From: Nocardiopsis composta
GTDB lineage: Bacteria; Actinomycetota; Actinomycetes; Streptosporangiales; Streptosporangiaceae
Length of the DNA stretch: 64,000 nucleotides
Direction: 5' to 3'
NCBI RefSeq assembly: GCF_014200805.1
Contig: NZ_JACHDB010000002.1
Span: forward strand, 124,001 to 188,000
Part shown: positions 4,491-53,811 of the stretch, piece after piece
Layout: each line of letters opens with the position of its first letter
Position numbering within the stretch: position 1 is the first letter of the stretch
Position numbers and translations under genes: made by a program
Notes under the pieces: model-generated
Seen by the model: the letters and a program-made list of their open reading frames with translations, nothing else
The model's database searches: none
What the model was told of the DNA's origin: nothing

Positions 4491-4491
4491 C

Positions 4492-26166: not shown

Positions 26167-28023
26167 TTAATCCGTTTCCGGGGCGCTCCGCTCAGGCGGG
26201 CCCCCGGGCGCCCCTGTCCGAGCAGTGCCGAAGATCCGGTAGAGTCGAGGGGTCGCCAGGGCGAACACCCGGGAACGGCACGGGGCTATGGCGCAGTTGG
26301 TAGCGCGCCTCCATGGCATGGAGGAGGTCTGGGGTTCGAATCCCCATAGCTCCACGTAAAGTTGAACGTTCGAACCTTGCCCCGCATCATCGCGGGGCAA
26401 GGTTCTTTCGTTGTGTGGCCTGGGGTCGGTGGCCAGGATCGTCTGGATCGCTTCGGTCGGTTGGAGGGTGGCGTCGTCGTCATCGATGGTGATGCGGTCG
26501 AACAGTGCCCGGTTGAGCATCCGCCGCTCGGAGGGTTCGGCCTTGGCGTAGACGTCGCCGATGTCGGTGAGGAGCCCGAGGATTGCGTCGAGCCCGACCT
26601 TGGCCTTGTCGTAGGTCATCTCCAACGTGTCGAGCCGGCCGGTGATCGCTTGCAGGCTCGCGCGGATGCGGTCTTGTTCGGTCTTGAGCAGGGCGATGGG
26701 GATCGCGTCGGCGTAATGGGCTTGGAGGAGCTTGACCTGTTCGGCTTCGAGCTTCGCCTTCTGCCCGGCGAGGAGCTTCTTCTCGTCGCTGGTGGATTCG
26801 GAGAGGGTGTCGAACACCTGCCCGAGCACACCCTGGACCTGCGCGGCCTCGCCAGGACTGATGGAGATGTCCTGGTAGCCGGCCTCGATGGACTGCTCGA
26901 CGCGGTGGGTGAGGACGGCGGCGCGCTGGCAGTTGTTGCGCTTGAACCGATGGCCGGTGCAGGTGAAGTAGTCGTAGGCGACGCCCTGGTGGTTGCGGGG
27001 ACGCTCGAACATGAGCCGCTTCCCGCAGGCGCAGTAGATCGAGCCTTTGAGGTAGTGATCGTACTTCTGCGGCTTGTCGCCGACGACGTGATTTTGCCGC
27101 AGAATCGTCTGCACCTGCTCGAACGTCTCCGGCGTCACGAGCGGATCATGTGTGCCTGGGTAGGTCACGTCACGGAAGGTGACGATGCCCTGGTAGTAGG
27201 GGTTCGTGAGGATCTTGTGCAGCGCGGTCGTGGTAACCGGCTTCGCGGGGAACGACGGCGTGGGCCGGGTGGTGAGGCCGCGGGTCTCCAGCTCGCGGGC
27301 GAGCTTCGATAGCGACCAGTCGCCGGTGGCGTAGGCGGTGAACGCGAACCGGATCAGCTCACACCGGTCGGGGTCGAGCCGGACCTCGCGGACTTCGCGC
27401 CCGTTCGCGTCGATGGTGCGGACGTTGAGGTAGCCGATGGGTGCCCGGTGCGGGGTGCCGCCGATCGTGGCTTTCTGCACGAGCCCCTTGGTGACCTCCT
27501 GGGCGAGGTTCAGGCTGTAGAACTCGGCGATCGAGGCCATGATGCCGTGCATCAGCATCCCGGACGGGGTCTCGTCGATGTTCTCCATGACGGACACGAG
27601 CGTGACCCCGGCCCGGCGGAGTGTGGCGTGGATGATCGCGTCATCGAGCCGGTTCCTCGCGATGCGGTCGACCTTGTTGATGATGCAGTACCGGACGGGG
27701 TGCTCGGCGAGATAGTCGAGCATCTCTTGGAGGGCTTTGCGGCGCGCGGTCTTGCCGGACTCGCCTGGTTCGATGAACTCCGCGACGATGACCGCGTTCA
27801 GCTGGTCGGCCTTGCGCTGCGCGGCGTCGCGCTGCGCGGGGATGGAGAGGCCTTCTTCGAGACCGTTGCGGGTGGCCTGGTCCTTGGTGGAGACCCGCAG
27901 GTACGAGATCGCGGGCACCTTCCCGTCAGGAAGGGCCGCTGCTTCGCTGGTCTGCTTCGGGCCGGCGGCCAGGGTGCGCAACGCGCCGAGGTCGAGGCCG
28001 GCGGAGAGATCGAGGAGCGTCAT
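26167..28023 (-). CDS. Large serine recombinase (ICE integrase)
   Basis: Catalyses integration and excision through a 5' phosphoserine. Seen: the resolvase catalytic domain with YLRVSTKDQ (nucleophile Ser near residue 45), IINKVDRIARNRLDD, the recombinase domain, a zinc ribbon (CACGKRLMFERPR with FTCTGHRFKRNNC) and a coiled coil (about 380-460). ATG 28023 is used; an in-frame GTG at 28050 is an alternative. Odd: element-like sequence ends near residue 543. The frame then continues through the repeat, the terminator and the antisense of tRNA-Ala for about 75 residues to a chromosomal stop at 26167. In the circle the C terminus would differ. Confidence 0.9.
   Translation of the reverse strand: MTLLDLSAGLDLGALRTLAAGPKQTSEAAALPDGKVPAISYLRVSTKDQATRNGLEEGLSIPAQRDAAQRKADQLNAVIVAEFIEPGESGKTARRKALQEMLDYLAEHPVRYCIINKVDRIARNRLDDAIIHATLRRAGVTLVSVMENIDETPSGMLMHGIMASIAEFYSLNLAQEVTKGLVQKATIGGTPHRAPIGYLNVRTIDANGREVREVRLDPDRCELIRFAFTAYATGDWSLSKLARELETRGLTTRPTPSFPAKPVTTTALHKILTNPYYQGIVTFRDVTYPGTHDPLVTPETFEQVQTILRQNHVVGDKPQKYDHYLKGSIYCACGKRLMFERPRNHQGVAYDYFTCTGHRFKRNNCQRAAVLTHRVEQSIEAGYQDISISPGEAAQVQGVLGQVFDTLSESTSDEKKLLAGQKAKLEAEQVKLLQAHYADAIPIALLKTEQDRIRASLQAITGRLDTLEMTYDKAKVGLDAILGLLTDIGDVYAKAEPSERRMLNRALFDRITIDDDDATLQPTEAIQTILATDPRPHNERTLPRDDAGQGSNVQLYVELWGFEPQTSSMPWRRATNCAIAPCRSRVFALATPRLYRIFGTARTGAPGGPPERSAPETD
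26282..26354 (+). tRNA. tRNA-Ala (anticodon GGC), copy 2
   Basis: 73 bases, identical to copy 1 (G3:U70, anticodon GGC). The antisense strand of this gene is read in frame as the 3' part of the integrated recombinase ORF. It marks the chromosomal side of the left ICE junction and is intact. Confidence 0.97.
26372..26405. terminator. Hairpin after tRNA-Ala copy 2, overlapping the left attachment repeat
   Basis: Arms GAACCTTGCCCCGC (26372-26385) and GCGGGGCAAGGTTC (26392-26405) pair perfectly over 14 bp with a 6-base loop, followed by TTTCG. It is the likely tRNA terminator. Its right arm contains the 12-bp repeat found again at 59878. Confidence 0.8.
26393..26404 (+). repeat. Candidate attL core (12-bp direct repeat)
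   Basis: CGGGGCAAGGTT occurs here and again at 59878-59889 in the same orientation. It is proposed as the recombination core. The true crossover of a serine recombinase may be only 2 bp inside it. Confidence 0.5.
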
Positions 28024-28189
28024 GGTCGTGACTGCCTTTCGGGCTCTCACCCAGCCCCAGCATTGGGGGTGGGTGCGGGCGCCGACGGGCGGTCACGACA
28101 CAAATTGGGGAGGCCTGCCGAACCGCGACGGGTTCGGGCAACAGATGGGTAAGCCGGTAGCGCCCTGGGATGGACGTACAACTGGGATT

Positions 28190-29613: not shown

Positions 29614-31398
29614 TTACTGCTGGTGGGCGTTGTGCAGGAGCTGTTCGACCTCGGCTCGATCCGCCTGGAGCTGCGTGCCGTCGGGGCGGTCGGGCCAGGC
29701 ACGCAGGTCGGTGATGATCGGCGGAGCCGACCGCAGCAGGGTGACGGCGGTGCCGAACGGGAGGCGTCGGATGTGATCGGGCGGGAGGATCGCGACCCGC
29801 CGCACGCTGCGTTGGTTGGAGCGGGAGCCGTGGTCGCCGACGGTGGTGGTGTCGGTGAGCTCGTCGCGTTCCCCGATGAGCGTGGAGAGGTCCTGGAGGT
29901 CGCGGCTGTTGGAGGCGCCGCCGAGGATGATTTTCACGATGGACGCGTCCCAGATCGCGCCGGCCTGGTGCTCGTTCCACTTGTCCCGCGCCTGCGCGAG
30001 GGACTGGAGCACGGCGAGGGTGGTGATGCCGGTGCCGCCGCCCTCGGCCATCAGGGTCGGCAGGCTGGGAAGAGGTGCCAGGTTCCCGATCTCATCCAGG
30101 CACAACAGCAGCGGCGGGTCCAACCGGGCACCGGTGGAGCGGGCGGCCATGCGGCGGGCGGTCTCCACGAGGTCTTCGACCAGTGCGGCGACGAGCGCGG
30201 CGCTGTTCCCGGCGCCGGCGCCGGTGGCGAGGAGGAACAGGGTGCCGCGATCGCGGATGAACGCCTCGGGGTCGAATTCCTCGCCCTCTGCGGGTGAGAC
30301 GGCATCGAGCACCCGCGGGTCCGCCAGCGCCGCCAGCGAGAGGCTGACGCCCTGCCAGATGGAATCCCTCGTGCGCGGGTCGGCGTCGATCATCGACGCG
30401 AGCGAGTCCGCCCACCCGGTCGCCGCGTCGGGGTGGTTGGTGAGGATCGCGACCGCGTCCGCTGCGCTGGTGGGGTCGAGGGTCCAGCGGAACAGCTCAG
30501 ATGGCGACCGGCTGTCGAGGGCGGCGGCGTGCAGCAGGGCCTGCAGCGCGGCTTTGGTTTTGCCTTCCCAGAAGTCGCCGCCTTCGACCCCGCCCGCGGA
30601 GAGGCCGGTCGCGGAGGCGAGGCCGGCGGCGCGGATCATCGCGGTCTGCGGGGACTCGCATCCGCGGATCGGTGACCAGCGCATCCCCGCCGGCAGGCCT
30701 TCGGCGAGATGCTGGGGGTCGAACACCGCGACCGGGCCGATGCGTTTGCGGGCGCGCAGGCACGCGGTGACGTTATCCGGGCGCGTGGAGGTGGTGACGA
30801 CGGCGCCGGGGGCGTCGAGGATCGCCGGGATGATCAGGTGCAGGCCCTTGCCGGAGCGGGGCGGGCCGATCAGCAGGATCGAGTCCTCCACGCTCGCCCG
30901 CACCTCCCGGCGGTGCGCGGTGCCGAGCCGATACCCGACATCACCCGGCTGCGGGTTGTCCAGGCTGGGGCGGAGGGTGCCGGCCCGCCGCATGAGCGCC
31001 TTCACTGACGCCGCCTTGGCGGCCTCATGCCGCGTGGCGGTGCCTTCCTTCCGGTGCGGATCGCCCGCGGCCTGCCGACTCAGCCGGCGGATCAGGCTCC
31101 AGACCCAGAGCCCCGCGGCGGTCAGGGCGGTGAGCATGAGGGCGGCGGTGATCCAGTAGACGACGGGGTTCAGACCCTCAGCGCCGAGCTGCCCGCCCGG
31201 GTCGGAGGGGGGGAAGAACACCGCGACCCCGCCGGTCGCCCCGGTGGTCGGCTGCGGGGTGCCGGTGAGGAACGCGGCAATACTGCCCGCGGCACGGAGC
31301 ACGAACGCGACCCCGAGCAGTCCGCCGATCGCGATGAGCAGGATGTTGGTGAGTTCGTCGCCCATCGGCTGGCCGGCGCGGCCCTGCGGGCCGGTCAT
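29614..31398 (-). CDS. VirD4/TraG-type conjugative coupling ATPase
   Basis: A 594-residue inner-membrane ATPase that brings the relaxase-DNA complex to the secretion channel. Seen: two N-terminal membrane segments (about residues 18-44 and 79-103), Walker A GPPRSGKGLHL near 178-188, Walker B LLLCLDEIGNLAPLPSLPTLMAEGGGTGITTLAVLQSLAQ near 420, and the C-terminal VRRVAILPPDHIRRLPFGTAVTL motif. This is the TraG/VirD4 architecture. ATG 31398 overlaps the previous stop (31395), so translation is coupled. Confidence 0.93.
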   Translation of the reverse strand: MTGPQGRAGQPMGDELTNILLIAIGGLLGVAFVLRAAGSIAAFLTGTPQPTTGATGGVAVFFPPSDPGGQLGAEGLNPVVYWITAALMLTALTAAGLWVWSLIRRLSRQAAGDPHRKEGTATRHEAAKAASVKALMRRAGTLRPSLDNPQPGDVGYRLGTAHRREVRASVEDSILLIGPPRSGKGLHLIIPAILDAPGAVVTTSTRPDNVTACLRARKRIGPVAVFDPQHLAEGLPAGMRWSPIRGCESPQTAMIRAAGLASATGLSAGGVEGGDFWEGKTKAALQALLHAAALDSRSPSELFRWTLDPTSAADAVAILTNHPDAATGWADSLASMIDADPRTRDSIWQGVSLSLAALADPRVLDAVSPAEGEEFDPEAFIRDRGTLFLLATGAGAGNSAALVAALVEDLVETARRMAARSTGARLDPPLLLCLDEIGNLAPLPSLPTLMAEGGGTGITTLAVLQSLAQARDKWNEHQAGAIWDASIVKIILGGASNSRDLQDLSTLIGERDELTDTTTVGDHGSRSNQRSVRRVAILPPDHIRRLPFGTAVTLLRSAPPIITDLRAWPDRPDGTQLQADRAEVEQLLHNAHQQ

Positions 31399-31973: not shown

Positions 31974-33455
31974 TCAGCTGCGCGCCGCCGCCCGCGAGCT
32001 CGTGTCGAAGAGCCGATTCTCGGCCGGGTGCAGCTGGTGTTGGACGACGTAGGAGGAGCCCTTGAACTTCCACAGCCCCTGCCCGACCCCCAGCGTCGGC
32101 AGCAGGGCCTGTTCGGTGCCGGTCAGGCCGAGCGCCGCGGAGGTGGGGCCGAGCTGGTCGCTCTCTTGCCGGTAGATGATCCTCGTCTCCGCGTTCGCCA
32201 ACAAGGAGTTGGCGAGGCCGCGCATGGCCGAGCCCTGATCGCCGACATTGTCGAGATCGGAGACCTTGTGGAAGATCATCGCGTTCGCGATCCCATACGC
32301 CCTGGCGAGTCGCCAGTGCGCGTCCATCCGCCTCAGCAGGGCGGGCTGGGACATGAGGCGCCAGGCTTCGTCGTAGATGCACCACCGCTGCCCGCCGGCG
32401 GGGTCGAGGAGGGCGGCTTCCATCCACGCGCTGGAGCAGGTCATGAGCGCGGAGATGAGGGTGGAGTTCTCGGTGACCTGGGAGAGGTCGAGGGAGATCA
32501 TCGGCAGCGACGGATCGAACACCTCCGTCGAGGGACCATCGAACAAGCCGGCGAGGTCACCGGCGACCAGGCGGCGCAGGGCGTGGCCGACCATCCGCCC
32601 GTCCTCTCGGAGCCTGCCGTCCTCGTCGCCGGCGGGGTCGAGAAGGTGGTCAACGATCATCGGCAGGATCGGCACCGAGTTGCCGCGCATGGTCGCCGCC
32701 AGGGCGGTGTCGATCGCGGTGTGCTCCAACGGCGACATGGGCCGCGCCAGTACGGTCTCCGTCAATGCTCCGATCAGGTCGCGTCGCCGGGAGACGACGG
32801 TCGCGGTCCATTGTTCGTCGCTCATCCCGGCCGGCCGGTAGCCCTCATCGAGGGGATTCAAGCGTGAGGGCAGGCCGTGGCCGAGCTTGATCGCCCGCCC
32901 GCCGACGGCTTCCGCCACGGCCGTGTGTTCGCCTTTCGGGTCGCTGGGGATGTAGACGCGGCGACCGAACCCGAGCGAGCGCGTGTAGAGGCTCTTCGCC
33001 AGGCTCGACTTGCCGGAGCCGACGATCCCGGCGACCACGACGTTCGGGGCGGTGATGACCCCGTTCGCATACAAAACCCACGGGTCGTAAACGAATGACC
33101 CGCCTGAGTAGAGGTCCTGCCCGATGAACACGCCGTGGGAGCCGAGGCCGCCCTCGGCGAGAAACGGATACGCCCCAGACAGCATCGCCGAGGTGTCCTG
33201 ATGCTTCGGGAGGCGAAACCGGCCCGGCGTGCGCAGCGTCGCCGGACCGGGCTCGCCGGCGGCGGGCAGATACCGGGTCGCCCGCCGCTCAGCCCGCTCA
33301 CGCTCCCGCTTCGCCCTCGCCTCGGCCCGCTCACGTTCCCGCTGTGCGGCAACGAGCTCCGCCGCCGCCTGCCGGCGCTGCTTGCGCAGCCGGCGCCGCT
33401 CCTTGGCCGGGGCGACGAGGACGGCGGAGTGCAGCTTCTCGCGGTCGCCGCTCAC
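31974..33455 (-). CDS. VirB4-type conjugation ATPase
   Basis: A 493-residue ATPase that powers the type IV secretion machine. Seen: a charged N-terminal coiled coil (residues 15-70, Arg/Glu repeats), Walker A VAGIVGSGKSSLAKSLYTRSLGFGRRVYIPSDPKGEH near 143-150, Walker B WCIYDEAWRLMSQPALLRRMD, and GIANAMIFHKVSDLDNVGDQGSAMRGLANSLLANAETRIIYRQ typical of the VirB4 C-terminal domain. It overlaps the upstream gene by 4 bases. Confidence 0.92.
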   Translation of the reverse strand: MSGDREKLHSAVLVAPAKERRRLRKQRRQAAAELVAAQRERERAEARAKRERERAERRATRYLPAAGEPGPATLRTPGRFRLPKHQDTSAMLSGAYPFLAEGGLGSHGVFIGQDLYSGGSFVYDPWVLYANGVITAPNVVVAGIVGSGKSSLAKSLYTRSLGFGRRVYIPSDPKGEHTAVAEAVGGRAIKLGHGLPSRLNPLDEGYRPAGMSDEQWTATVVSRRRDLIGALTETVLARPMSPLEHTAIDTALAATMRGNSVPILPMIVDHLLDPAGDEDGRLREDGRMVGHALRRLVAGDLAGLFDGPSTEVFDPSLPMISLDLSQVTENSTLISALMTCSSAWMEAALLDPAGGQRWCIYDEAWRLMSQPALLRRMDAHWRLARAYGIANAMIFHKVSDLDNVGDQGSAMRGLANSLLANAETRIIYRQESDQLGPTSAALGLTGTEQALLPTLGVGQGLWKFKGSSYVVQHQLHPAENRLFDTSSRAAARS

Positions 33456-34240
33456 CGGAACAACCCCCGGTCCTCGGCGACCTCATCGATCGCATCCGGC
33501 CGAAACCACGACGACGCCCCGCCCGATCGTGCCGTCCCGCCATGCCGCCCGCGCCGCGGCGCGGGCTCCGGGAGGGGCGGGATGGTGGTGCCGGAGGCCG
33601 GAGCCTCAGGGTTGGGGGCGTCGATGCGGCGGGACAAGCCCACGTAGTTCAGATCGAGGCTGTAGGTGAGGGCGTAGTCGCCGGACGTGGCGAGCCGGTC
33701 GGCGGCGCTCTGCGGGGCGGTGTCGTAGACGTACCCGTGCTCCATCGCATCGCTGACGGTCTCCTCGCCGTGATCCCAGCCGGCGAGGTGGGCGATCGCG
33801 GCGTCCGTGCCCTGCCGGTCGATGATCTCCATCACCGGGTCCGCGTCCTCGCCTTGGAGGAACACGATGCTGACCCACCGGTGCTGCGGATCGTCGGGCC
33901 TCCACGCGATCTGCCCCGCCTTCCCGGACGCCTGGTCGAGGGAGACTTCGGCCTGGTCCATGCGGGCGGACGCGGTGCGCAGCGCATCGATCGTGTCGCT
34001 GATGAGCGTCCGTGCGGCGAGCGGATCACCGTGATCGGTCGTCGCCCGTGCCGCACTGCGGTGATGGTTCTGGGCGAGCTGATCGGTGACCTGAGCCAGG
34101 TACCGGGTGCTGGCCAGCAGGTTCCCGATGACCTCATACATGACGCGCGGGTCCTCGATGGCGGCCGTGGCGTGCGCGAGACCGCGCAAGGCCTCAGCGG
34201 CTTCGCGGGCATCCGCTTGGGGATCGTTGAATGTCGGCAT
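33452..34240 (-). CDS. Hypothetical ICE transfer-region protein
   Basis: 262 residues (MPTFNDPQADAREAAEALRGLAHATAAIEDPRVMYEVIGNLLASTRYLAQVTDQLAQNHHRSA). The first 110 residues look helical, the middle is a mixed globular part (HRWVSIVFLQGEDADPVMEIIDRQGTDAAIAHLAGWDHGEETVSDAMEHGYVYDTAP), and the C terminus is Pro/Arg-rich. I cannot name the family. It overlaps virB4 by 4 bases, so it is part of the transfer operon. The CHAT gene diverges from it. Confidence 0.75.
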   Translation of the reverse strand: MPTFNDPQADAREAAEALRGLAHATAAIEDPRVMYEVIGNLLASTRYLAQVTDQLAQNHHRSAARATTDHGDPLAARTLISDTIDALRTASARMDQAEVSLDQASGKAGQIAWRPDDPQHRWVSIVFLQGEDADPVMEIIDRQGTDAAIAHLAGWDHGEETVSDAMEHGYVYDTAPQSAADRLATSGDYALTYSLDLNYVGLSRRIDAPNPEAPASGTTIPPLPEPAPRRGRHGGTARSGGASSWFRPDAIDEVAEDRGLFR

Positions 34241-34392: not shown

Positions 34393-35455
34393 GTGGGATC
34401 ACAGCAGTACCGCGGGGAGCTGGAGCGCAAGCGCAAGCAGCGCGTCGACGCGGAGAAGAAGGCCGGTGAGTACCGGAACAAGGAGTCGAAGAAGCGTGCC
34501 GAGGCGGACAAGGCACGTCAGGAGGCGACGAAGACCAAGAGCGCGGCGACACAGAAATCGAAGTTGAGCCGGGCCGCGCAGCGTGACAAGGAGGCCGCGT
34601 CCGCCGGAAGCGAAGCGAACAAGTGGCAGGCCAAGGCCTCCGGCTACCCGTAAGCAGGAAGCAGACCTCCAGACCAAGCTCGCACGAGCAGAGCGCTCCG
34701 AGGCCGACGCGGCGGAACGGAAGCGCAAGCGAGAGCAGACCGCGGCTGATCGGCGCGCAGCCGCCGAACGCGCGGCGACCGAAGCGCGCTTCGACCGCAC
34801 GGAACATGCTGTCGGCGAAGCGCTCCGGGAACTGCGTGCACCCAAGCCCGAGAAGCTGCGGGTGCTGTTGCTCGGCGCGTCCTCCGAAGGCGATCTGCGC
34901 GTCGGGCGAGAGCAGAAGCGTATCCGATCCGCCGTCGAGTCCGCGCTGCACCGAGACCTGATCGAACTCGATGTCCGCCCTGCCGCGACCGCGAGCGACC
35001 TGCTGGACGGCATCACCAAGTTCCGTCCGCACGTCGTGCACTTCTCCGGACACAGCAACGAAGACCTCATCGTCTTCGAACACGACACCGACGCACCGCA
35101 CGCCGGGCACGTCGTCACGGCGCGCGCGTTCTCCCGCGCCATCGCCGCCACTGACGACCCGCCCCTGCTCGTGCTGCTCAACGCCTGCAAATCTGCCGCG
35201 CAGATCGATCAACTCGTCGCGGACGTCGTCCCGTTCGCTATCGGCATGGCCGACAGCATCGACGACGGAGACGCCATCAACTCCGCCGCCCAGTTCTACG
35301 CCTCCATCGCGAACGGACAGTCCGTGCGCTCGGCGCATCTGTCCGGACAGGCCGCGTTGGAGATGGCCGGCCTCGACGGTGCCGAGCTCCCGACCCTCGC
35401 CGCAGCTCCCGACGTCGACCCCGGTGCCACGATCCTGGTCGAGCCCACCGACTGA
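34393..35455 (+). pseudogene. Coiled-coil CHAT-domain (caspase-like) gene split by a frameshift
   Basis: It starts GTG 34393 after a GAGGAGCCGAG site. The first frame gives 86 residues of Lys/Glu/Ala coiled coil, ending at TAA 34651-34653. The same coiled coil resumes in the +1 frame (RKQEADLQTKLARAERSEADAAERKRKREQ) and runs to 35455. The second part carries the CHAT fold: KLRVLLLGASSEGDLRVGREQKRIRSA, catalytic His in VVHFSGHSNEDLIVFE and Cys in LLVLLNACKSAAQ. CHAT proteases act in immunity and cell-death systems. It is the only plus-strand gene inside the transfer operon, so it looks like cargo. Either mutation or recoding explains the break. Confidence 0.8.
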
Positions 35456-35462
35456 CCACATC

Positions 35463-36932
35463 TCAGATGCGGCGGGCGATGGGCAGGGCGGCGGCGGTGA
35501 ACGCGGCGGCCTGCTGCCCAACCAGGCGCCGGGTTTCGCATGACGCCTGGATCGCGGCCTGCTCGATCGCCGCGACCGCCGTGTCGAGCTCTTCGACGGT
35601 GGGGGCGGTGATGGCGATGAGGCCGGTGTAGCGCAGCACCCCGTGCCCGGCGGTCAGATCGGCTTCCTGGCGCAGCACGTCCTCGTACTCGGCGGTCTGG
35701 GAGGCGTCCTGGATCTGCCCGATCTTCGCCCGCTGGGCGCGGTCGCTGATGTACTCCACCTTCTTCTTGCGGATATCGCGCACGGCTTGGTCGGTGCGGA
35801 GCGGGGTGCAGATCAGCGAGATCGACCGCTGTATCCCTGTCGACAAGGTGATGGGGGCGAGGAACCCGGGATACACCATCGCGCGGGGCCACTCCGAGAT
35901 CCAGAGCACGGCGTGATAGCCGGAATCGGTCCGCAACCGCTCCCACGTCTCGGCGACCGCGACCGGGCCGGCGGTCGCGAGGTCCTGGCCGAGCTGTCCG
36001 TGGCGTTCCAGAGTCGGCCCGATGGCGGGGTCGTAGGCGGTGCGCAGCATCACCGCCAGCTCGCCCGTGGACAGCCAGCCGGAGGGGGTGAGGTCGGCGG
36101 CGCGGAGCGCGGAGAGGAGGGTGGTCATCTCCTGGCGGAGCACGTTCGCCGCCCCTTTCAGGCCGCCACCGGCGGTGCGGATCTGCCGGCCCGCCGCCTT
36201 CATATCCAACGACAACGACAGCGTCGTGGCGTGACGTTCCCCGGCAGGCCCGGCACGGTCGATCAGCTCGCTGTAGGTGGTGGAGGCCCAGGAGTCGTCG
36301 TGGGCGCCGTGCTCGGCCCACCATTCGGCGAGCCCCTGCCCCGAATCCGGCAGCGTCCGCTCCAGGACTTGGAGGGTGGCGACCCGGCCGGAGCGGCAGA
36401 TCGTGGCGAGCACGCGGCCCCAGGCGGTGACGCGGCGGTGCTGCTCGGACGGGTCGAGCAGCACGAACGCCGGATGCGTGACCGACACCACCACGGTGAG
36501 CGTGTTCGCGGTCGGGTCGTGGATCATCCCGGCCCCGGTCTCGGGGTCGGTGTACTCGCGCAGCCGGGCCATATCTCCCGGCAGCGCGAGCGTGCCCTCG
36601 GGTCTCGGGGCGACGATCCGGCGCCGGTAGGCGAGCTGTCCACCGGTGGTGCGCCAGGCCCACCAGGCGCAGACGGGTATCCATTCGACCAGGGCCCGGC
36701 CCCCGGTCTTCACCCAGGTCAGGGCGATCGCGGCCGCCCAGATGGGGGCGGAGTAGGCGATGAGGATGCCGCCGCCGGCATACAGCGCTCCGATCAGGGA
36801 GGCGCCGCCGATGCCGAGGGCGATCATCTGCGACAGTGACAGGCCCAGGATGAGGCCGCGTCGGGTGAGGCGGGAGAATTTCACCGGCACCAGCTCGCCG
36901 GTAGTCGTGGTGGTGTCGTCTGTGCGGGGCAT
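35463..36932 (-). CDS. SCO6880-family conjugation protein
   Basis: A 489-residue protein with two N-terminal hydrophobic segments (about residues 27-75) in a PrgI-like layout, followed by a soluble domain (AFVLLDPSEQHRRVTAWGRVLATICRSGRVATLQVLERTLPDSGQGLAEWW, and ...RHATTLSLSLDMKAAGRQIRTAGGGLKGAANVLRQEMTTLLSALRAADL) typical of the actinobacterial SCO6880 family. These proteins sit beside VirB4 and probably replace VirB3 plus the VirB4 N terminus. It lacks a P-loop. It starts 3 bases after trbL. Confidence 0.85.
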   Translation of the reverse strand: MPRTDDTTTTTGELVPVKFSRLTRRGLILGLSLSQMIALGIGGASLIGALYAGGGILIAYSAPIWAAAIALTWVKTGGRALVEWIPVCAWWAWRTTGGQLAYRRRIVAPRPEGTLALPGDMARLREYTDPETGAGMIHDPTANTLTVVVSVTHPAFVLLDPSEQHRRVTAWGRVLATICRSGRVATLQVLERTLPDSGQGLAEWWAEHGAHDDSWASTTYSELIDRAGPAGERHATTLSLSLDMKAAGRQIRTAGGGLKGAANVLRQEMTTLLSALRAADLTPSGWLSTGELAVMLRTAYDPAIGPTLERHGQLGQDLATAGPVAVAETWERLRTDSGYHAVLWISEWPRAMVYPGFLAPITLSTGIQRSISLICTPLRTDQAVRDIRKKKVEYISDRAQRAKIGQIQDASQTAEYEDVLRQEADLTAGHGVLRYTGLIAITAPTVEELDTAVAAIEQAAIQASCETRRLVGQQAAAFTAAALPIARRI

Positions 36933-36935
36933 CGC

Positions 36936-38300
36936 CTACTCCTTCCCGCCGGCCGGGCCGGGGTCCGCCGGCGCGGGGGCGGCCGGTTCGGTCGGGGTGT
37001 TCGGCACCGGCGCCGACGGAGCCGGCGGCGCACCGCCGCCCGGGCCGCCGTCGCCGTTGCTGTCGTTGGTGGTGTTGCCGGTGTTCTGGGCTCCCACGGC
37101 GGCGGTGTCGGCCTGGGTGCCGACCTCGTGGCCGGCCTCGGGGCCGGCCTCGGCGGCTTCTTTGGCGACGATCACGCCGGCCACGACCGGGGCGGCAGGT
37201 CCGCTGCTCGCGGCGGTCTCCGTTCCCGCCTCGGCGGTCGCGGTCTCCGTGCCCGCGGTCTCGGTGCTGGCGGGCGGCTTCGTGGGCGGGCTCCCACCCC
37301 CATCACCGTCACCCCCGCCGTCTCCGCCGCTGGAGCCGTCGAGGATCTTCTTCGGGCCCTCGCCGCCCCGGGTGGGGACCGGGAGGGGCCGGTTCATGGC
37401 GTTCTTGGCGTCCTGTTCGGCGCCCATGGTGTTGTAGAGGTCGAAGCCCACGAAGCTCAGGAGCCGGTAGACCATGTAGGGGGCGAAGGCCGCGATGCCG
37501 AGCAGCACGATCCCGGCGATGGGCTCGGTCACCGCGGTTAGGCCGGCGTCGATGGGGGTCGCGACCTGCGTGATCGCGACCAAGAACACCACGACGAGCA
37601 CCAGCTTCGAGACGATCAGGGCGATCAGGAACGTTACCCACTTCCCGATCCACCCCTTGGTCACATCCCACGACGCCCCCGACAACGCCAGCGGTGCCAG
37701 CACCACGGTGACGAGAATCAGCGCCTTGCGGATCAACAAGCTGAACCAGACGATGCCGATCGCGGCGATCATCAACCCGGCCAGGAAGATCGACACGATC
37801 GCGCCGACGCCGGGAGCCGTGATGTTCAGCCCCGCGAGGGCGCCAGCGAGCAGGAGGAGTTGGTTGCCCATCGACTCGGTGGTCTCCCCGGCGGCCTGGA
37901 TGAGGCCAATGCAGAGCTGGTCGACGATCTCCAGCAGCACCGTCGTCAACGTGATGACCACGAAGCTGCCGAGGATCGACTTGCCCGCCCCGAGCGCGGC
38001 ACGGGACAGGGCGCCCGGGTCGCGCTGGATCATCCCGGTGATCAGTTGCAGGAAGAAGAAGATCGCGATGATGAACAGGGCGATCCCGAAGACGATGTTG
38101 TAGACCGAGACGAACCCGTCCTGGTTCAGGTCGACCAGGGTGGTGGTGTCGAAGACGGTCCACATCGTCTCCATCAGCCAGGCCGCGGCCCCGGCCATCG
38201 AGGAGGCGAGCCAGTCGAACGGGGCGGCGATCAGGGACGCGGTGCCCTCACCGACGGCGTCGCACACGTTGGAGATGACGGGGATGTCGCACACGCTCAC
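36936..38300 (-). CDS. TrbL/VirB6-type transfer channel membrane protein
   Basis: A 454-residue polytopic protein with seven or more hydrophobic segments between residues 60 and 300 (VYNIVFGIALFIIAIFFFLQLITGMIQRDPGALSRAALGAGKSILGSFVVITLTTVLLEIV), typical of TrbL/VirB6. These proteins form part of the inner-membrane pore. The C-terminal 150 residues are a Gly/Asp and Pro/Ala/Thr-rich tail, probably extracytoplasmic. The start is GTG 38300 after an AGGAGG site 8 bases away. Confidence 0.87.
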   Translation of the reverse strand: MSVCDIPVISNVCDAVGEGTASLIAAPFDWLASSMAGAAAWLMETMWTVFDTTTLVDLNQDGFVSVYNIVFGIALFIIAIFFFLQLITGMIQRDPGALSRAALGAGKSILGSFVVITLTTVLLEIVDQLCIGLIQAAGETTESMGNQLLLLAGALAGLNITAPGVGAIVSIFLAGLMIAAIGIVWFSLLIRKALILVTVVLAPLALSGASWDVTKGWIGKWVTFLIALIVSKLVLVVVFLVAITQVATPIDAGLTAVTEPIAGIVLLGIAAFAPYMVYRLLSFVGFDLYNTMGAEQDAKNAMNRPLPVPTRGGEGPKKILDGSSGGDGGGDGDGGGSPPTKPPASTETAGTETATAEAGTETAASSGPAAPVVAGVIVAKEAAEAGPEAGHEVGTQADTAAVGAQNTGNTTNDSNGDGGPGGGAPPAPSAPVPNTPTEPAAPAPADPGPAGGKE

Positions 38301-38335
38301 GGCGCACCCCTCCTTTCACACGCAGAAGAGAGGGG

Positions 38336-38605
38336 TTAGACCTGCTGGCCGACCGACCAGCCGAAGTTCACCAGCGCGACGGCGGCGCCGCAGATCACGG
38401 CCGCGCCGCAGGAGATCAGCAGCCCCGTCTTCCCCCGCCCGGCGAGGTGCGGGTTGGACGAGTTGGAGCCGTAGGCCCAGACGATCGCGGAGACGATCAG
38501 GGCCAGCACGCTGAGGATGAGGCCGACGGTCATCACGGCGCCGACGATGGTGCGCAGCTGCTCGATGCCCGGCAGTCCGCTGGAGTTGGGGTCGATGTCG
38601 ATCAC
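38336..38605 (-). CDS. Small two-helix membrane protein, DUF6112-like (pilin-like), copy A
   Basis: About 89 residues from GTG 38605 (VIDIDPNSSGLPGIEQLRTIVGAVMTVGLILSVLALIVSAIVWAYGSNSSNPHLAGRGKTGLL). It has two hydrophobic segments with a small polar loop, resembling VirB2/TrbC-type pilins. It is clearly related to the next gene (38747) by the pattern SGLxGIExLR...GSxxxNxxLAxRGrxGvxxS. The GTG is placed 6 bases after GAAAGGG; a longer ORF start is rejected because it would cover the upstream motif. Confidence 0.8.
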   Translation of the reverse strand: MIDIDPNSSGLPGIEQLRTIVGAVMTVGLILSVLALIVSAIVWAYGSNSSNPHLAGRGKTGLLISCGAAVICGAAVALVNFGWSVGQQV

Positions 38606-38644
38606 GATGTGCCCTTTCACGAGACGAGAGACAGTTCCGACCGC

Positions 38645-38654
38645 CAGGTGCACC
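38645..38654 (-). promoter_or_regulatory. Shared ICE upstream motif GGTGCACCTG, copy 3
   Basis: Minus-strand GGTGCACCTGGCGG, 40 bases before the GTG start of the DUF6112-like gene. Confidence 0.5.
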
Positions 38655-38746
38655 ACCCGCGCCCAGGGGCGCACGAAAGACCCGCCCCGAGGTGCCGAAG
38701 CACCCGAGGGGCGGGCCAGAGAAAACCGAAGACGGCCGCGGCGGGG

Positions 38747-39016
38747 TTAGAGCTGGTTGCCGATGGTGATGAGCCAGTTCAGCCAGGCGACGCCGGCGCC
38801 GGCGAGGATCGCGCCGGCGAAGGACACGAACACCCCGGCCCGGCCGCGGGCGGCGAGCTGGTAGTTGCCGTTGCTGGAGCCGATCGCCCAGCAGACGCCT
38901 GAGACGATCAGCATCAGCACCGCCACGATCAGCACGAACATCAACACCGCGCCGGCGACCTCCCGCAGATCCTCGATCCCCGACAGCCCTTCGAAATCCG
39001 GGAACACCTCCATCAC
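38747..39016 (-). CDS. Small two-helix membrane protein, DUF6112-like (pilin-like), copy B
   Basis: 89 residues (MMEVFPDFEGLSGIEDLREVAGAVLMFVLIVAVLMLIVSGVCWAIGSSNGNYQLAARGRAGVFVSFAGAILAGAGVAWLNWLI). It has the same two-segment layout as copy A, from which it has diverged; a tandem duplication is likely. ATG 39016 overlaps the stop of the hydrolase gene. It possibly supplies the surface filament or a channel subunit. Confidence 0.82.
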   Translation of the reverse strand: MMEVFPDFEGLSGIEDLREVAGAVLMFVLIVAVLMLIVSGVCWAIGSSNGNYQLAARGRAGVFVSFAGAILAGAGVAWLNWLITIGNQL

Positions 39017-41277
39017 GCCCCCTCCCGGACCGTGATGTGGAGGTGGTCGAAGTGCCCGCCGGTCACATCTGAGGGGTCGTGCATCCCGCCACCGCTGTAG
39101 TCGCGCCAGCCCTCATCGGCGCGGGCGAGGGACCAGATCTTCCCTTGCCAGATCAGGTACTCGACGCCGAGGATCTCGGCGTGCTCTTGGAGCCAGTCGG
39201 TGACCCGCCACCCGTACTCGAGCTGGGCCGGGGTCGGGTACTGGCCGATCGCATTCCCGAACGCCACATCACACGCACGCCCGATGGGATGCTCCGATTT
39301 CGATCCCGGCCGGGGCGAGTAGCACGCCCACGTCGACTCCGGGAACGCGGCGAGGGTCTGTTCGTAGACGCTGCGCGTCCGCACCGTGATCTGCCCACCG
39401 CTGGTGGGGTCGTCCACCAGCTCGTCCGGGTCACCGTCGACCGGGGCCGGATCACCCGGCGTGCCCTGCTCGGTGTCGCAGTCCTCGTGCTGTCCGGGCG
39501 GGGTGACGTCGGACTCGTCGAGGTCGGCGGCGTCATGGTCGTTGAGCCACTTCGCGGGATCGATGTACTCGCCGTCGGTGCCGCCGTCGCGGACCTCGAA
39601 ATGCAGATGCGGCCCCGTCGACATCCCCGAGCTGCCGACGTCGGCGATGTGCTGCCCCGCCCGCACCGTGTCACCCGGCGCGACGTGGATGCCGTCCTCC
39701 CAGGAATGCGCGTACGCGGTCGCCATGGTCTTCCCGTCGATGCGGTGCTCGATGACGACGAGACCCCCGTAGCCGCCGGAGAACTCCGGGACCGTCACGG
39801 TGCCGTCCGCGGCCGCGAGGATCGGGGTGCCGTCCGGGGCGGAGAAATCGCTGCCGGTGTGGAAGGACTGCTCCCCGGTGATCGGATGCGTCCTCGGCCC
39901 GAACGGGCTGGTCGGCACCCACGTGCCCTCCGGGAGCGGGAACACCACCCGCGCAGACTCGACCGGCTCCGCACCCACCAGGACCGGGGCACGTGCGGGG
40001 CCGGGATCGCCGCTGGCGCTGCCGCTGCCGGTGAGGGCGGCGAGGATGTCTTCGGCGACGGGCTCGTAGTTGTCGTACCGGTCCGGGAACGCGCTGACTT
40101 CCACGGCTTGGGCGGCCTCGCCCTTGCCCATCTGCTCCCAGCCGGGAATGTCCAACAGCCCCCTGGGTGAGCCGGTGTTGGGGCCGCCCCGGCCACCGTA
40201 GAACGCGGCGGCCTGATAGTCGGGGTCCATGAGCTCGGCGACGGTGCCCCACCCGGAGGCCGGCCGCATCTGAAACAAACCGAGGGAGTCGTGATCCGAG
40301 CCGTCGCCGTCGTTCGGGTACTCGCCGCTCTCCGGATACGCGGAGGTGTTGGCGAGCATCCGCATCCGCGACTCGGTCAGCGCCGCCATCAACGCGATCA
40401 CGATCCCATCCCGGCCGACCCCGTCGGTGGCGTTGCCGGTCTCGATGATCGTGGCGGCGTGGGTGAGCTCGGCCTTGCCGAGGACGATCTGTTCCCCGTC
40501 GCGGGTGGTCGAGGTCAGGTCGTCCGGCACGTCGCCGACCTGCACGCTGCCGCCGGGGGCGGCGCAGGAGGCGGCGGAGGGGTTGACGAGCAGCCCGACC
40601 GAGACGAGGACGACCGGCTGGTCGAGGACGGACAGGCGCAGCAGATAGCACGGGTCGCCGCCCGGCGGGCAGGTCAGGAAGATCGTGAACGCCACCTCAT
40701 GCGCACTCGACGTCGCCTCGTCATTCCAGATGCCCTGCCGGTGGCGGACACCCTCGACCGTGTACGCGATGGTGCCGGGCGCCAGTTGCCCCGGCTGCGC
40801 CTGCGATTCGGCCTCCGCCCACGCCTCCGGCACGAACACATCGGTGAGCTCCAAGCGCTGGGTCGTGCTGTACTTGCGCAGCTCGACCCAGGTCTCCCGG
40901 TTCGGGAGATAGCCGGCGATATCCGAGGCCAGACTCGCCTGCTCGACCCCGGACGGATCGGCAACGGCCAGGAGAACGCTGGTGTAGTCCAGCGGCATCA
41001 GCCCGCTGGTCGTATCCCACCCGAACAGCGCCTCCGCAACGGCGCGGGCGAACTCCTCCGGGTCGTCGGTCTCAGGGATCGGCGCCAGCTCCCGCGGCCC
41101 CTGCTCCGTCGTGCCCAGTGCGGTCGGTGACGGGCGCGCGGGTGGCGGGTCGCTGGTGGTGCGGGGGCCGGCGACCAGGCCGTAGACGCCGACGCCGACC
41201 AGGAGCAGCACGACGACCGCGGCCGAGATCAAGACGACCAGTCGGCGGCGGGAACGAGAAGCATCTGTCGAGTTCAT
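39013..41277 (-). CDS. Three-domain peptidoglycan hydrolase of the transfer system
   Basis: A 754-residue secreted or anchored protein that locally opens the wall for the conjugation channel. Seen: one N-terminal membrane segment (about residues 10-33); a lysozyme-like region around 260-400 (VIALMAALTESRMRMLANTSAYPES, HDSLGLFQMRPASGWG); an M23 domain around 450-570 (FHTGSDFSAPDGTPILAAADGTV, GPHLHFEVRDGG); and a C-terminal domain like ARB_07466 (SEHPIGRACDVAFGN, GGHFDHLHITVREG). ATG 41277 is used. GTGCACCTG lies just upstream of it. Confidence 0.88.
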   Translation of the reverse strand: MNSTDASRSRRRLVVLISAAVVVLLLVGVGVYGLVAGPRTTSDPPPARPSPTALGTTEQGPRELAPIPETDDPEEFARAVAEALFGWDTTSGLMPLDYTSVLLAVADPSGVEQASLASDIAGYLPNRETWVELRKYSTTQRLELTDVFVPEAWAEAESQAQPGQLAPGTIAYTVEGVRHRQGIWNDEATSSAHEVAFTIFLTCPPGGDPCYLLRLSVLDQPVVLVSVGLLVNPSAASCAAPGGSVQVGDVPDDLTSTTRDGEQIVLGKAELTHAATIIETGNATDGVGRDGIVIALMAALTESRMRMLANTSAYPESGEYPNDGDGSDHDSLGLFQMRPASGWGTVAELMDPDYQAAAFYGGRGGPNTGSPRGLLDIPGWEQMGKGEAAQAVEVSAFPDRYDNYEPVAEDILAALTGSGSASGDPGPARAPVLVGAEPVESARVVFPLPEGTWVPTSPFGPRTHPITGEQSFHTGSDFSAPDGTPILAAADGTVTVPEFSGGYGGLVVIEHRIDGKTMATAYAHSWEDGIHVAPGDTVRAGQHIADVGSSGMSTGPHLHFEVRDGGTDGEYIDPAKWLNDHDAADLDESDVTPPGQHEDCDTEQGTPGDPAPVDGDPDELVDDPTSGGQITVRTRSVYEQTLAAFPESTWACYSPRPGSKSEHPIGRACDVAFGNAIGQYPTPAQLEYGWRVTDWLQEHAEILGVEYLIWQGKIWSLARADEGWRDYSGGGMHDPSDVTGGHFDHLHITVREGA

Positions 41278-41283
41278 GCCCAC

Positions 41284-41293
41284 CAGGTGCACC
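41284..41293 (-). promoter_or_regulatory. Shared ICE upstream motif GGTGCACCTG, copy 4
   Basis: Minus-strand GGTGCACCTGGTGGGC directly before ATG 41277, with the same layout as copy 2. Confidence 0.5.
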
Positions 41294-41354
41294 CCGACGC
41301 ACATCCGCCCCAGCACCCCCTACAGGGGTCCGGGGCGGCCAAGCAACGTGAGGG

Positions 41355-43771: not shown

Positions 43772-44577
43772 GACAGTTCCTCCTCGGAATGTTCAGGTGG
43801 GATGCCGGCCTCCTGCGGGCCGGACGACTCAGACACCTCGACCGCGGGTTCGGGCTTGGGCTGGGCTTGTTGGGGAAGCCAGCGGCCCACGGTGGAGGGA
43901 TGCACGTCGAGCTCGCGGGCGATCTGCTTGTTCGACCAACCCGCCTCCCGCAGCCGCGCCGCCCGCTCCCGCCGCCCAGAACTAGCCACCGTCGGAGCCG
44001 GCTCGTGGGCCTCGTGGATCGCGGGCGCGGTCGGCTCTACTTCGTCTTTGTCCTCGTGCTGCGGTGAGGGGGCGTCGGGCTCCGGCGCCGGGCTCTGGGT
44101 TGGGGTCTCGGGTGCGGTGCCTGCCGGCGGGAGAGCCGGCAGCGGCTCATCGGTCTGCGGCGGGGTGGTCGTGGTGCGGGTGGAGCGGATGAGCACGACG
44201 GTCAGATGCGTGGACGCCAGCAGCACCAGGGGTGGGACGGCGGCGACGGTCGCGGCGAGCAGGCCCGGCACGGACGCCTCGGCGGTGACCAGGGCGTGCG
44301 CGGCGTTCGCGACCACCGAGACAAGTGCGCCGCCAATGAGCAGCGCCCACGGATACCACGCCGCCCGGTGCCCATCGAGAGCGACCACGGCGACGGTGGC
44401 GACGACGATCAGCCCGTCGACCAGCAGCGGCCAGATCCACGCCTGCCCGCCCCCGATCCCCGAGCGCACGGCGAGGTCGGCCAGCGCCGTGAACGACAGC
44501 CAGAACGCGCCCGCGCCGATGAGCACGGTGCCCGACGCGGCCGTGACCACCGCCCACCCGCGCCGCCGAGTCATCAC
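43768..44577 (-). CDS. DUF2637 membrane protein with C-terminal HTH
   Basis: 269 residues. The first 140 hold four membrane segments of the DUF2637 type (VLIGAGAFWLSFTALADLAVRSGIGGGQAWIWPLLVDGLIVVATVAVVALDG), known from actinobacterial plasmids (SpdA/Spread-like neighbourhoods). A Pro/Glu/Thr linker follows, then a helix-turn-helix near residues 205-235 (RAARLREAGWSNKQIARELDVHPSTVGRWLPQ). A membrane-bound DNA-binding protein is implied. It overlaps genes on both sides. Confidence 0.85.
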   Translation of the reverse strand: MMTRRRGWAVVTAASGTVLIGAGAFWLSFTALADLAVRSGIGGGQAWIWPLLVDGLIVVATVAVVALDGHRAAWYPWALLIGGALVSVVANAAHALVTAEASVPGLLAATVAAVPPLVLLASTHLTVVLIRSTRTTTTPPQTDEPLPALPPAGTAPETPTQSPAPEPDAPSPQHEDKDEVEPTAPAIHEAHEPAPTVASSGRRERAARLREAGWSNKQIARELDVHPSTVGRWLPQQAQPKPEPAVEVSESSGPQEAGIPPEHSEEELS

Positions 44578-51136: not shown

Positions 51137-51454
51137 GAGGTGGCTCCGCAGGCTTCGTGAACTCGGGATCTCGACGCGACCGAACGGGCGCCGACGCTCC
51201 GGGCTGAACACCTGCCAGGTGTGCCACCAGACGACCGGCGCGTATCGAATGACCGCGGCCCGAAGCGTCTTCGGCCGACTGCCTCCTCGAACCCGCGGCA
51301 GCGCGCGACTCGACCTCCTTCGTGACCGTCGCTCTCGCCGCCCCAACGAGCCGCCACACGTCTTTCAAGCGAGGCCCCTGCCGTCAACCTAAGTTGACAA
51401 CGGGAGGTTGAGGCGCTTCGCCGTTGTGAGATGCCGTCGGCTCACCTGGTCGGT
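51137..51454. other. Divergent region between the methyltransferase fragment and relaxase; possible oriT
   Basis: 318 bp. It contains the inverted repeat GTCAAC-CTAA-GTTGAC (51383-51398) and a second one, ACAACGG (51397-51403) with CCGTTGT (51421-51427), both within 75 bp upstream of the relaxase. MobF origins of transfer typically lie beside the relaxase and contain such dyads. Inference only. Confidence 0.4.
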
Positions 51455-53235
51455 ATGACGGTCTCGATGCGAGTGATGAGCGCCGGCGACGGCTACGAGT
51501 ACCTGCTGCGCACCGTCGCCGCCGGTGACGGCGACCGCTCGCTCTCGACCCCGTTGACGAGGTATTACACGGAGGAGGGAACTCCTCCCGGGTTTTGGAT
51601 GGGGTCGGGCCTGCCGTACCTCGGCGGCGGCGAGCTCACCGAGGGCGGCCGGGTCTCCGAGGCTCAGCTTCAGCTCCTGGTCGGGATGGGTCGCGACCCG
51701 ATCACGGGTGAGCCGCTGGGTGAGACGTATCGGCAGTACGCGAGCGTGCAGGAGCGCGTCGATCAGCGGGTCGCTGACCTTGACTCGGAGCTGGGGCCGG
51801 TGTCTCGTGCGGAGCAGGTCGCGGCGATCGAGGCGGAGGAGGCTGAGCGCGGCACCCGCCGGGCGGTCGCGGGGTATGACTTGACGTTCTCGGTGCCGAA
51901 GTCGCTGTCGGCGTGGTGGGGTGTTGCGGACGGAGGCACGAAATCCCTGATCGCGGACGCCCACCATCAGGCCGTTGCCGAGGTGGTTGCGTTCCTCGAA
52001 CGCGAGGTTGCGACCACCCGCGTCGGCGCCGCCGGCCCGGACGGGGCGGTCGCGCATGTCGATGTCGCCGGCGTCCTCGCCACCGCGTTCGACCACTACG
52101 ACTCACGCCGTGGCGATCCGCAATTGCACACCCACGTCGTGGTGAGCAACAAGGTCCTCACCGTGCAGGACCAGAAGTGGCGGACCCTCGCCGGCCGACC
52201 CGTGCACGCCTCGGTCGTCGCCCTGTCCGAACTGTACAACGCCACGTTGGCGGATCGGATCACGGGCATGTTCGGGATCGAGTGGGAGGCCCGGGAGCGA
52301 GGCCAGGATCGCAACCCCGCGTGGGAGCTCGCCCCGGTGCCGGACGAGCTGATCTCGGAGTTCTCGTTGCGGTCCCGCCAGATCGAGGAGGAGAAGACTC
52401 GTCTGATCGACGCCTACCGGGCCAAGCACGGCCGTGAGCCGTCGGCGAAGACGATCCTGAAGCTGCGCGCCCAGGCGACCCTGGCGACCCGTCCGGAGAA
52501 GCGGGTGCAGTCGCTCGCTGCCCTCACTGCCAACTGGCGCCACCGCGCCGGCGAGGTCTTGGGTGAGGACGCGAACGCCTGGGCGCGCACCCTCACTGGG
52601 ACTGGCGAGCAGGCGGCGCTGTTGCGGGCCGACGACGTGCCCCTGGATACCATCACCGACCTCGGCCAGTCCCTCGTGGCTGCGGTGGGTGAGAAGCGGT
52701 CGACGTGGCGGCGCTGGAACCTCCACTCCGAAGCCTCCCGCCAACTCATGGGGGTCCGGTTCGCGTCGGCCGCCGACCGGGAGGCGATCACCGGGATGGT
52801 GACCGACGCGGCCGAGCAGGCGTCGCTGCGGTTGACGCCGCCGGAGCTGGCATCGAGCCCGGTCGTGTTCCGCCGCCCCGACGGGTCGAGCCGCTTCCGC
52901 CACCCCAGCGCCGTCCTGTACTCCACCGAGGAACTGCTCGCCGCAGAAGACCGCCTCCTCGACCGCTCCCACGCCACGACCGGGCCGACCGTGGAACTGG
53001 CCACCGTCGAGAAGATCACCAGCAGGCCCGACGCGGAAGGGCGCCGGCTCGGCCCCGATCAGGCCGATGCCCTTCAGCGGATCGCCGTGTCGGGCCGGGT
53101 CGTGGACGTGCTCGTCGGGCCCGCCGGTGCGGGGAAGACGACGGCGATGAGCGCGTTGAAACGGGCGTGGGAGAAGCAGCACGGCGCCGGCAGCGTGGTG
53201 GGGTTGGCGCCGTCGGAGAACGCGGCGCAGGTGCG
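51455..53235 (+). pseudogene. MobF (TrwC-type) relaxase, truncated in the helicase domain
   Basis: It starts at ATG 51455 (MTVSMRVMSAGDGYEYLLRTVAAGDG). The relaxase domain is complete: FSVPKSLSAWWG, VAHVDVAGVLATAFDHYDSRRGDPQLHTHVVVSNKV with the metal-binding histidines. The helicase Walker A appears at VVDVLVGPAGAGKTTAMSALKRAW, then the sequence breaks after GLAPSENAAQV. The frame runs on to 53320 through antisense dprA. A full protein would be about twice as long. It may still nick oriT but cannot unwind DNA. Confidence 0.88.
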
Positions 53236-53811
53236 CCGGTCCGGCCCGCCGGGCACCACCGCGATCGTCTGCCCACCGCTACTCAGCGCAGCGCGGTGCG
53301 CGGCACCGTCGATGCCGTAGGCGCCGCCGGAGACCACGATCTGCTCCGCGTGCGACGCATCGTGCGCGAGCTCTCCGACGACGTGATCGCCGTAACTCGT
53401 CGATGCCCGAGACCCGGTGATCGTCACCCGCGTCTCCTGCCGGACTGCGAGGAACGAGGTCGCCCCCTTCGCCCACAGCACATACGGGGCACGATCACCC
53501 AGCGCGTCCACCGAGACCGGCCAATGCGCATCGCCAGGGATCAGCGGCGCATACGACCCGTCCAGCAGCCCCGCCAGCTCATCGCCGAGGCTGCCCCGGG
53601 AAGCGAACTGCTGCGCGGTGTGGTGCAGGATCGACGCTTCCTCAGCCCGGACGCCCGGCATCGATCCGCCCGCGTCGAGGAGCCGGAGGGTCTCGACGGC
53701 GCCTTCGCGGCGCAGCAGCCGACCGACGGTGCGGTCGGCGGGCTCGATCATCATCGAGAGCATCACGCGGGCCGTCCGCTCATCGGAGGCGTAGTCAGCC
53801 AGAGCAACCAT
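53236..53811 (-). pseudogene. DprA-like DNA-processing protein, 3'-truncated
   Basis: From ATG 53811 (MVALADYASDERTARVMLSMMIEPADRTVGRLLRREGAVETLRLLDAGG). The Rossmann core of DprA is present (RVTITGSRASTSYGDHVVGELAHDASHAEQIVVSGGAYGIDGAAHRAALSSGGQTIAVVPGGPDR). It ends at the junction with the relaxase, where the usual YP..N..L segment should follow. DprA loads RecA on incoming single strands. Preceded by GTGCACCTG copy 6, 36 bases upstream. Confidence 0.85.

What the first reader, a model, noticed from the sequence alone, without database searches (positions are those of the whole stretch)
34393..35455. CHAT caspase-like gene with coiled coil, split by a +1 frame change
The coiled coil is continuous across two frames (stop TAA at 34651-34653, resuming in +1), and the CHAT His and Cys are both intact. 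The gene is the only plus-strand gene inside the transfer region. Either a single indel inactivated it recently, or expression is controlled by recoding. CHAT proteases often execute defence or programmed cell death.
Basis: partly seen in the sequence, partly recalled or inferred. Interest (0 to 1): 0.62.

Follow-up and report, generated by a model that had tools for sequence, protein, structure and literature searches.

The report
Broken protease gene in mobile element
A mobile DNA element in this actinobacterium carries a damaged copy of a caspase-like protease gene, probably an anti-phage suicide gene; intact relatives encode it as one protein, and several other copies have been broken independently, so this is a dead gene and not a new way of reading genes.

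Summary
A plus-strand gene (34393-35455) encodes a coiled coil and a CHAT caspase-like domain, and a one-base length change beside the TAA at 34651-34653 splits it. Intact relatives at 53-99% identity read the same protein in one frame (about 353 aa), and both halves are under strong purifying selection (dN/dS mostly 0.05-0.15). The frame break is private to this genome. A copy 99.8% identical lacks it but has its own nonsense mutation 95 bp upstream. A Ruania copy has a different frameshift and a Herbiconiux copy an IS256-type insertion. This is a pseudogene, not recoding; a sequencing error is the main rival.

The intact gene is probably a stand-alone abortive-infection effector. Its N-terminal helical hairpin matches, in register, that of the phage-defence candidate PDC-S66, whose C-terminus is TIR. 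Its CHAT domain is closest to SAVED-CHAT (8TL0). It occupies a cargo slot inside the transfer region of a tRNA-Ala ICE; the slot is empty in some relatives and holds AbiH or TIR-like genes in others. The element here looks defective, with a truncated relaxase. The defence function is inferred.

The parts
34393..34653 (+). 5' fragment of the CC-CHAT gene: helical hairpin residues 1-85, ends at TAA 34651-34653
   Evidence: GAGGAG ribosome-site-like motif upstream; matches intact homologues in frame
34646..34653 (+). frame break: one-base length difference from all close relatives, directly before the TAA
   Evidence: pairwise DNA alignments with L002 (G067) and L020; private to this genome
34583..35455 (+). 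second open frame (+1): listed ORF of 290 aa; in-frame homology starts at residue 86 (about 34652)
34856..35455 (+). CHAT caspase-like protease domain (residues 155-353)
   Evidence: Pfam PF12770; AlphaFold2 model of the intact homologue; 8TL0 match
35051..35053 (+). catalytic His220 codon (HFSGH)
   Evidence: invariant in 27 homologues, aligned with 8TL0
35186..35188 (+). catalytic Cys265 codon (LNAC)
   Evidence: invariant in 27 homologues, aligned with 8TL0
35282..35284 (+). private Tyr297Ser substitution at a position that is aromatic in relatives
33452..34240 (-). conserved ICE gene of unknown function on one side of the cargo slot
   Evidence: present beside CHAT in the ICE copies and directly beside the SCO6880-like gene where the slot is empty
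35463..36932 (-). SCO6880-family transfer gene on the other side of the cargo slot
   Evidence: NCBIfam NF042935 E 1.3e-135
31974..33455 (-). VirB4/TraC-like transfer ATPase of the ICE
   Evidence: NCBIfam NF045971 E 1.4e-17, below its cut-off
29614..31398 (-). coupling protein (TraG/TraD type)
   Evidence: Pfam TraG-D_C 1.8e-27, T4SS-DNA_transf 9e-27
51431..53320 (+). TrwC relaxase, C-terminal helicase part lost (629 aa against 1206 aa in G067)
   Evidence: Pfam TrwC 1.5e-88; comparison with G067
26167..28050 (-). large serine recombinase at the ICE end, its 3' end overlapping a tRNA-Ala
   Evidence: Pfam Resolvase and Recombinase; tRNA-Ala 26282-26355

Best explanation
The gene is a recently inactivated copy (pseudogene) of a single-gene coiled-coil-CHAT effector carried as cargo by a tRNA-Ala integrative and conjugative element. 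Intact copies make one protein of about 353 aa: an N-terminal helical hairpin (residues 3-137) that most likely senses a trigger or oligomerises, and a C-terminal CHAT cysteine protease. By analogy with SAVED-CHAT and with the CC-TIR candidate PDC-S66, activation of the coil should switch on the protease, which cleaves cell proteins and stops growth of the infected cell (abortive infection). In this genome a one-base change ends translation inside the coil, so neither coil nor protease function is expected. Shown: the split, one-frame homologues, purifying selection on intact copies, independent breaks elsewhere, intact catalytic motifs, shared coil module, cargo slot. Inferred: sensing by the coil, proteolysis, phage defence, and loss because the gene is dispensable or costly.
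For: Intact single-frame homologues in Brevibacterium, Brachybacterium, Microbacterium, Kocuria, Arthrobacter, Rhodococcus, Streptomyces and others. dN/dS mostly 0.05-0.15 for coil and CHAT domain. The G067 copy differs at 3 positions in 1260 bp over the gene region: no frame break there, but a CAG-to-TAG nonsense at the equivalent of 34552; the third difference is the window's Tyr297Ser. Ruania L024 has another frameshift in the coil; Herbiconiux L026 has a 1.47 kb insertion in the coil encoding a 462 aa IS256-type transposase (recognised by eye). Broken CHAT in 4 of 10 ICE copies against about 5 of 110 neighbouring gene copies, Fisher p 0.003; without the window 3/9 against 4/98, p 0.012. 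The window element has other lesions: relaxase truncated, two genes fused. The coil matches PDC-S66 in all 7 full-length homologues scanned, in register from the N-terminus in 6 of them (E 2e-5 to 2e-18; the seventh 0.008), while 0 of 7 heptad-preserving shuffles match. CHAT matches 8TL0 at 7.6e-30.
Against: No raw reads, so an assembly error cannot be excluded; a length error in a short run of one base is a common long-read fault. The enrichment of breaks was noticed after the fact, rests on few copies, and partly uses draft genomes; it shows dispensability and does not prove selection for loss. In two ICE remnants (G909, G765) the CHAT gene stayed intact while transfer genes were lost. No defence activity is shown for this family.
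Confidence: 0.77

Rival explanations
1. The frame break is a sequencing or assembly error and the gene is intact in the living strain.
For: The change is a one-base length difference in a short run of the same base, typical of long-read errors; the rest of the CHAT domain has no synonymous difference from G067.
Against: The same allele carries a second private change (Tyr297Ser) at an aromatic position, the element is damaged elsewhere, and three other copies are broken by different kinds of mutation, including a substitution and an insertion that are not homopolymer errors.
Confidence: 0.16
2. Programmed +1 frameshifting joins the two frames and controls the amount of CHAT protease.
For: Coil is continuous across the frames and the stop lies exactly at the shift; catalytic residues intact.
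Against: Homologues at 53-99% identity have no shift; the site is private; other copies are broken at other positions; the P-site codon CCG followed by U offers no obvious +1 re-pairing (my reading, not tested); Tyr297Ser.
Confidence: 0.02
3. The two frames are expressed as separate proteins (free coil and free CHAT) with a split function.
For: Truncations that spare the CHAT frame recur: window, G067, Ruania, Herbiconiux, and a Streptomyces clavuligerus pSCL4 copy that has lost the coil.
Against: No homologous pair of separate genes was found; after the TAA the first in-frame start is GTG 34862 inside the first CHAT strand, without an evident ribosome site; the lesions are all different.
Confidence: 0.05

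Closest known systems
SAVED-CHAT protease (PDB 8TL0; type III CRISPR and CBASS effector)
   Same: CHAT domain with the same His/Cys motifs, E 7.6e-30 by sequence profile and 2.5e-9 by fold
   Different: No SAVED domain found; an N-terminal helical hairpin in its place, and no CRISPR or CBASS genes among the flanking genes examined
PDC-S66 (PADLOC phage-defence candidate; CC-TIR protein such as L069:1492-2406)
   Same: Homologous N-terminal coil aligned from the N-terminus
   Different: C-terminal effector is TIR, here CHAT
Borvo (CHAT defence system; PF12770 listed for it in PMC10952713)
   Same: A defence system with a CHAT protease domain (single-gene by my recollection)
   Different: No Borvo match was reported by PADLOC; architecture not compared directly
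TPR-CHAT of type III-E CRISPR (Craspase)
   Same: Caspase-like CHAT protease that causes abortive infection (PMC10952713)
   Different: No TPR match and no CRISPR effector genes in the slot
AbiH and TIR-like cargo genes in the same slot of related ICEs
   Same: Same position in the transfer region, probable abortive-infection role
   Different: Unrelated protein families

Membership tests
CHAT protease domain family (PF12770) | Profile match above the curated cut-off | tested here: met
   window second frame 32.3 bits, cut-off 24; the full-length L020 protein was not reported at E 0.01, probably because of bias from the coil
CHAT protease domain family (PF12770) | Catalytic His and Cys | tested here: met
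   HFSGH and the Cys of LNAC invariant in 27 homologues and aligned with 8TL0
CHAT protease domain family (PF12770) | Proteolytic activity | not testable with these tools
   needs purified protein
SAVED-CHAT | N-terminal SAVED domain that binds a cyclic nucleotide | tested here: not met
   N-terminus is a helical hairpin; only the CHAT part of the SAVED_CHAT model and of 8TL0 aligns
PDC-S66 (CC-TIR) | N-terminal coil | tested here: met
   E 3.1e-7 for L020, 2.4e-18 for Halobacillus, in register from residue 1; shuffles do not match
PDC-S66 (CC-TIR) | C-terminal TIR domain | tested here: not met
   only profile positions 1-134 of 282 match; full-length member L069 has TIR_2 at 9.2e-24
Borvo | Match to its defining CHAT protein | tested here: inconclusive
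   no Borvo model among PADLOC hits, but presence of such a model in the library was not verified
TPR-CHAT (type III-E) | TPR repeats and CRISPR effector neighbourhood | tested here: not met
   no TPR family in Pfam; the flanking genes examined are transfer genes
Programmed +1 frameshift gene | Conserved shift site in homologues | tested here: not met
   homologues are continuous

The most novel reading that the evidence does not exclude
The helical hairpin is a general trigger module that is coupled interchangeably to TIR or CHAT effectors, giving an uncharacterised family of single-gene suicide systems; it travels in a defence cargo slot inside the transfer operon of actinobacterial ICEs, and is repeatedly knocked out because it harms some new hosts (autoimmunity).
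Probability: 0.3. Interest if true: 0.6.

Novelty: new member of a known kind. Interest (0 to 1): 0.34.

Why it matters
The split itself is an ordinary broken gene. What has wider value is its intact family: a widespread stand-alone coil-CHAT protein whose coil is homologous to that of a CC-TIR phage-defence candidate, sitting in a slot that related elements fill with AbiH, TIR-like or other genes or leave empty. That makes a simple test possible: does the same coil trigger two different killing domains? The natural broken alleles also help to ask whether such genes are costly in new hosts.

Tried and rejected
Recoding: rejected because homologues are continuous and the site is private. Internal re-initiation: first in-frame start after the TAA is inside the CHAT fold. 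Phage origin: no relatives in the phage collection or in viral contigs. A conserved partner gene (substrate, gasdermin, regulator): none seen; on plasmids the gene stands alone among unrelated genes. Coil match as mere composition: tested with heptad-preserving shuffles, rejected. Slot proteins L081, L082, L091, L096 and L098 have no confident Pfam or PADLOC match. Papers on ICEs with CHAT cargo, or on a Brevibacterium/Brachybacterium ICE: none found. One genome search failed.

Full report
Observation. The second frame matches Pfam CHAT (E 9e-8). Searching the own genome finds one copy only; the window lies at G000:C2:124001-188000.

One gene, one frame. Relatives from genome collections, near identical (97-99%) in Brevibacterium sp. 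CS2, B. senegalense, Brachybacterium massiliense and Microbacterium paulum, and down to 53% in other Actinomycetota, read straight through the place where the window breaks. Plasmid copies of about 353 aa are annotated as single genes in Rhodococcus, Curtobacterium and Streptomyces. Among intact ICE-type copies dN/dS is mostly 0.05-0.15, for the coil and for the CHAT domain alike. The protein is therefore maintained as one fused product.

The break is private and not alone. The closest copy (G067, same family, 1257 of 1260 bases identical) has no frame break but an in-frame TAG 95 bp upstream. The third difference is Tyr297Ser in the window, at a position that is Tyr or Phe in the 27 aligned homologues. 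The Ruania copy L024 has a different one-base shift in the coil. The Herbiconiux copy L026 is interrupted between residues 77 and 81 by 1.47 kb that encodes a 462 aa transposase of IS256 type (my recognition of the sequence). Outside this ICE group, Nonomuraea L034 has a frameshift at the start of the CHAT domain, Streptomyces clavuligerus pSCL4 has lost the coil, and staphylococcal plasmids carry a 5'-truncated remnant. In 10 ICE copies, 4 CHAT genes are broken against about 5 of 110 neighbouring gene copies (Fisher p 0.003; without the window 3/9 against 4/98, p 0.012; gene-copy totals counted by hand). The count was made after the pattern was seen, some genomes are drafts, and transfer genes are under their own constraint, so I read this as dispensable and perhaps costly, not as proof of selected loss. 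Against a simple cost story, two genomes (G909, G765) keep an intact CHAT gene beside remnants of the element.

No route to function in this allele. After the TAA the first in-frame start codon is GTG 34862, within the first CHAT strand. The element itself is damaged: the TrwC relaxase has lost its helicase half (629 aa against 1206 aa in G067) and two genes are fused at 39013-41316. A frame break in such an element needs no special explanation. An assembly error remains possible because no reads are available.

What the intact protein is. AlphaFold2 on 12 homologues gives a helical hairpin (3-47, 51-137) and an alpha/beta CHAT domain (mean pLDDT 80.6, pTM 0.56, with residues 221-239 poorly modelled). 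The best PDB matches are chains of the SAVED-CHAT filament 8TL0 (Foldseek E 2.5e-9; profile E 7.6e-30), with HFSGH on HFIGH and LNAC on LNAC. The coil matches the first 125-134 positions of PADLOC PDC-S66 in register (L020 3.1e-7, Halobacillus 2.4e-18, Agrobacterium 1.6e-9, Corynebacterium 2.5e-9). Seven shuffles that keep the heptad pattern do not match it. A full-length PDC-S66 protein (L069) has TIR at its C-terminus (TIR_2 9.2e-24). The same N-terminal module is thus joined to TIR in one family and to CHAT in the other. CHAT proteases with known roles act in defence: SAVED-CHAT by a proteolytic cascade (PMC11229360), type III-E and Borvo as listed in PMC10952713. PDC-S66 itself is uncharacterised (PMC12482510).

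Where it sits. The gene fills 1.2 kb between an SCO6880-family transfer gene and a conserved gene of unknown function, in an ICE with a coupling protein, a VirB4-like ATPase, a TrwC relaxase and a large serine recombinase that overlaps a tRNA-Ala. In more distant relatives of the ICE this slot is empty (53-123 bp in L084-L087, L089, L093-L095) or holds other genes: AbiH in L090 (1.4e-19), a TIR-effector-like protein in L109 (2.9e-10), a Clp_N protein in L088, and unknown proteins in L081, L082, L091 and L098. In L082, L088, L092, L098 and L109 the far side of the slot was not reached, so slot occupancy there is presumed. This supports cargo of the abortive-infection kind.

Verdict. A broken member of a known kind. 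Best-supported mechanism for the intact form, inferred: coil-triggered CHAT protease, stand-alone abortive infection. For this allele: no function expected.

Noticed in passing
window 25590, 26282, 61036, 62494: Four copies of a tRNA-Ala (ggc) with a 78-bp direct repeat, spaced 692, 34754 and 1458 bp: looks like tandem integration of elements at one tRNA; the serine recombinase ORF (26167-28050) reads antisense through one of them.
   Followed up: partly
window 51431-53320: TrwC relaxase truncated to 629 aa by a deletion of about 2.2 kb relative to G067 (1206 aa), so the element is probably not self-transmissible.
   Followed up: yes
window 39013-41316: One ORF of 767 aa here is two genes (about 235 and 550 aa) in all compared relatives; an 82-bp length difference from G067 lies at the junction (about 40615).
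   Followed up: partly
window 36546-40615 and 51941-53234 against G067: Sharp mosaic of divergence between two otherwise near-identical ICEs, as expected from recombination between related elements.
   Followed up: no
G067 equivalent of window 44853: The Prim-Pol gene (44574-45500) has a 2-base length change and a frame break in G067.
   Followed up: no
L081, L082, L091, L096, L098 slot genes: Cargo genes of unknown family in the same slot of related ICEs; L091 looks HEPN-like and L096 PIN-like by eye, untested. Candidates for new defence genes.
   Followed up: partly
L065 (Staphylococcus plasmid) 4001-4528: A CHAT gene lacking its coil and first strands; similar matches lie on 12 staphylococcal plasmid records.
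   Followed up: partly
L067 (Agrobacterium pTiCFBP5877): Three CHAT genes in a row next to TIR and caspase-family genes on a Ti plasmid.
   Followed up: no
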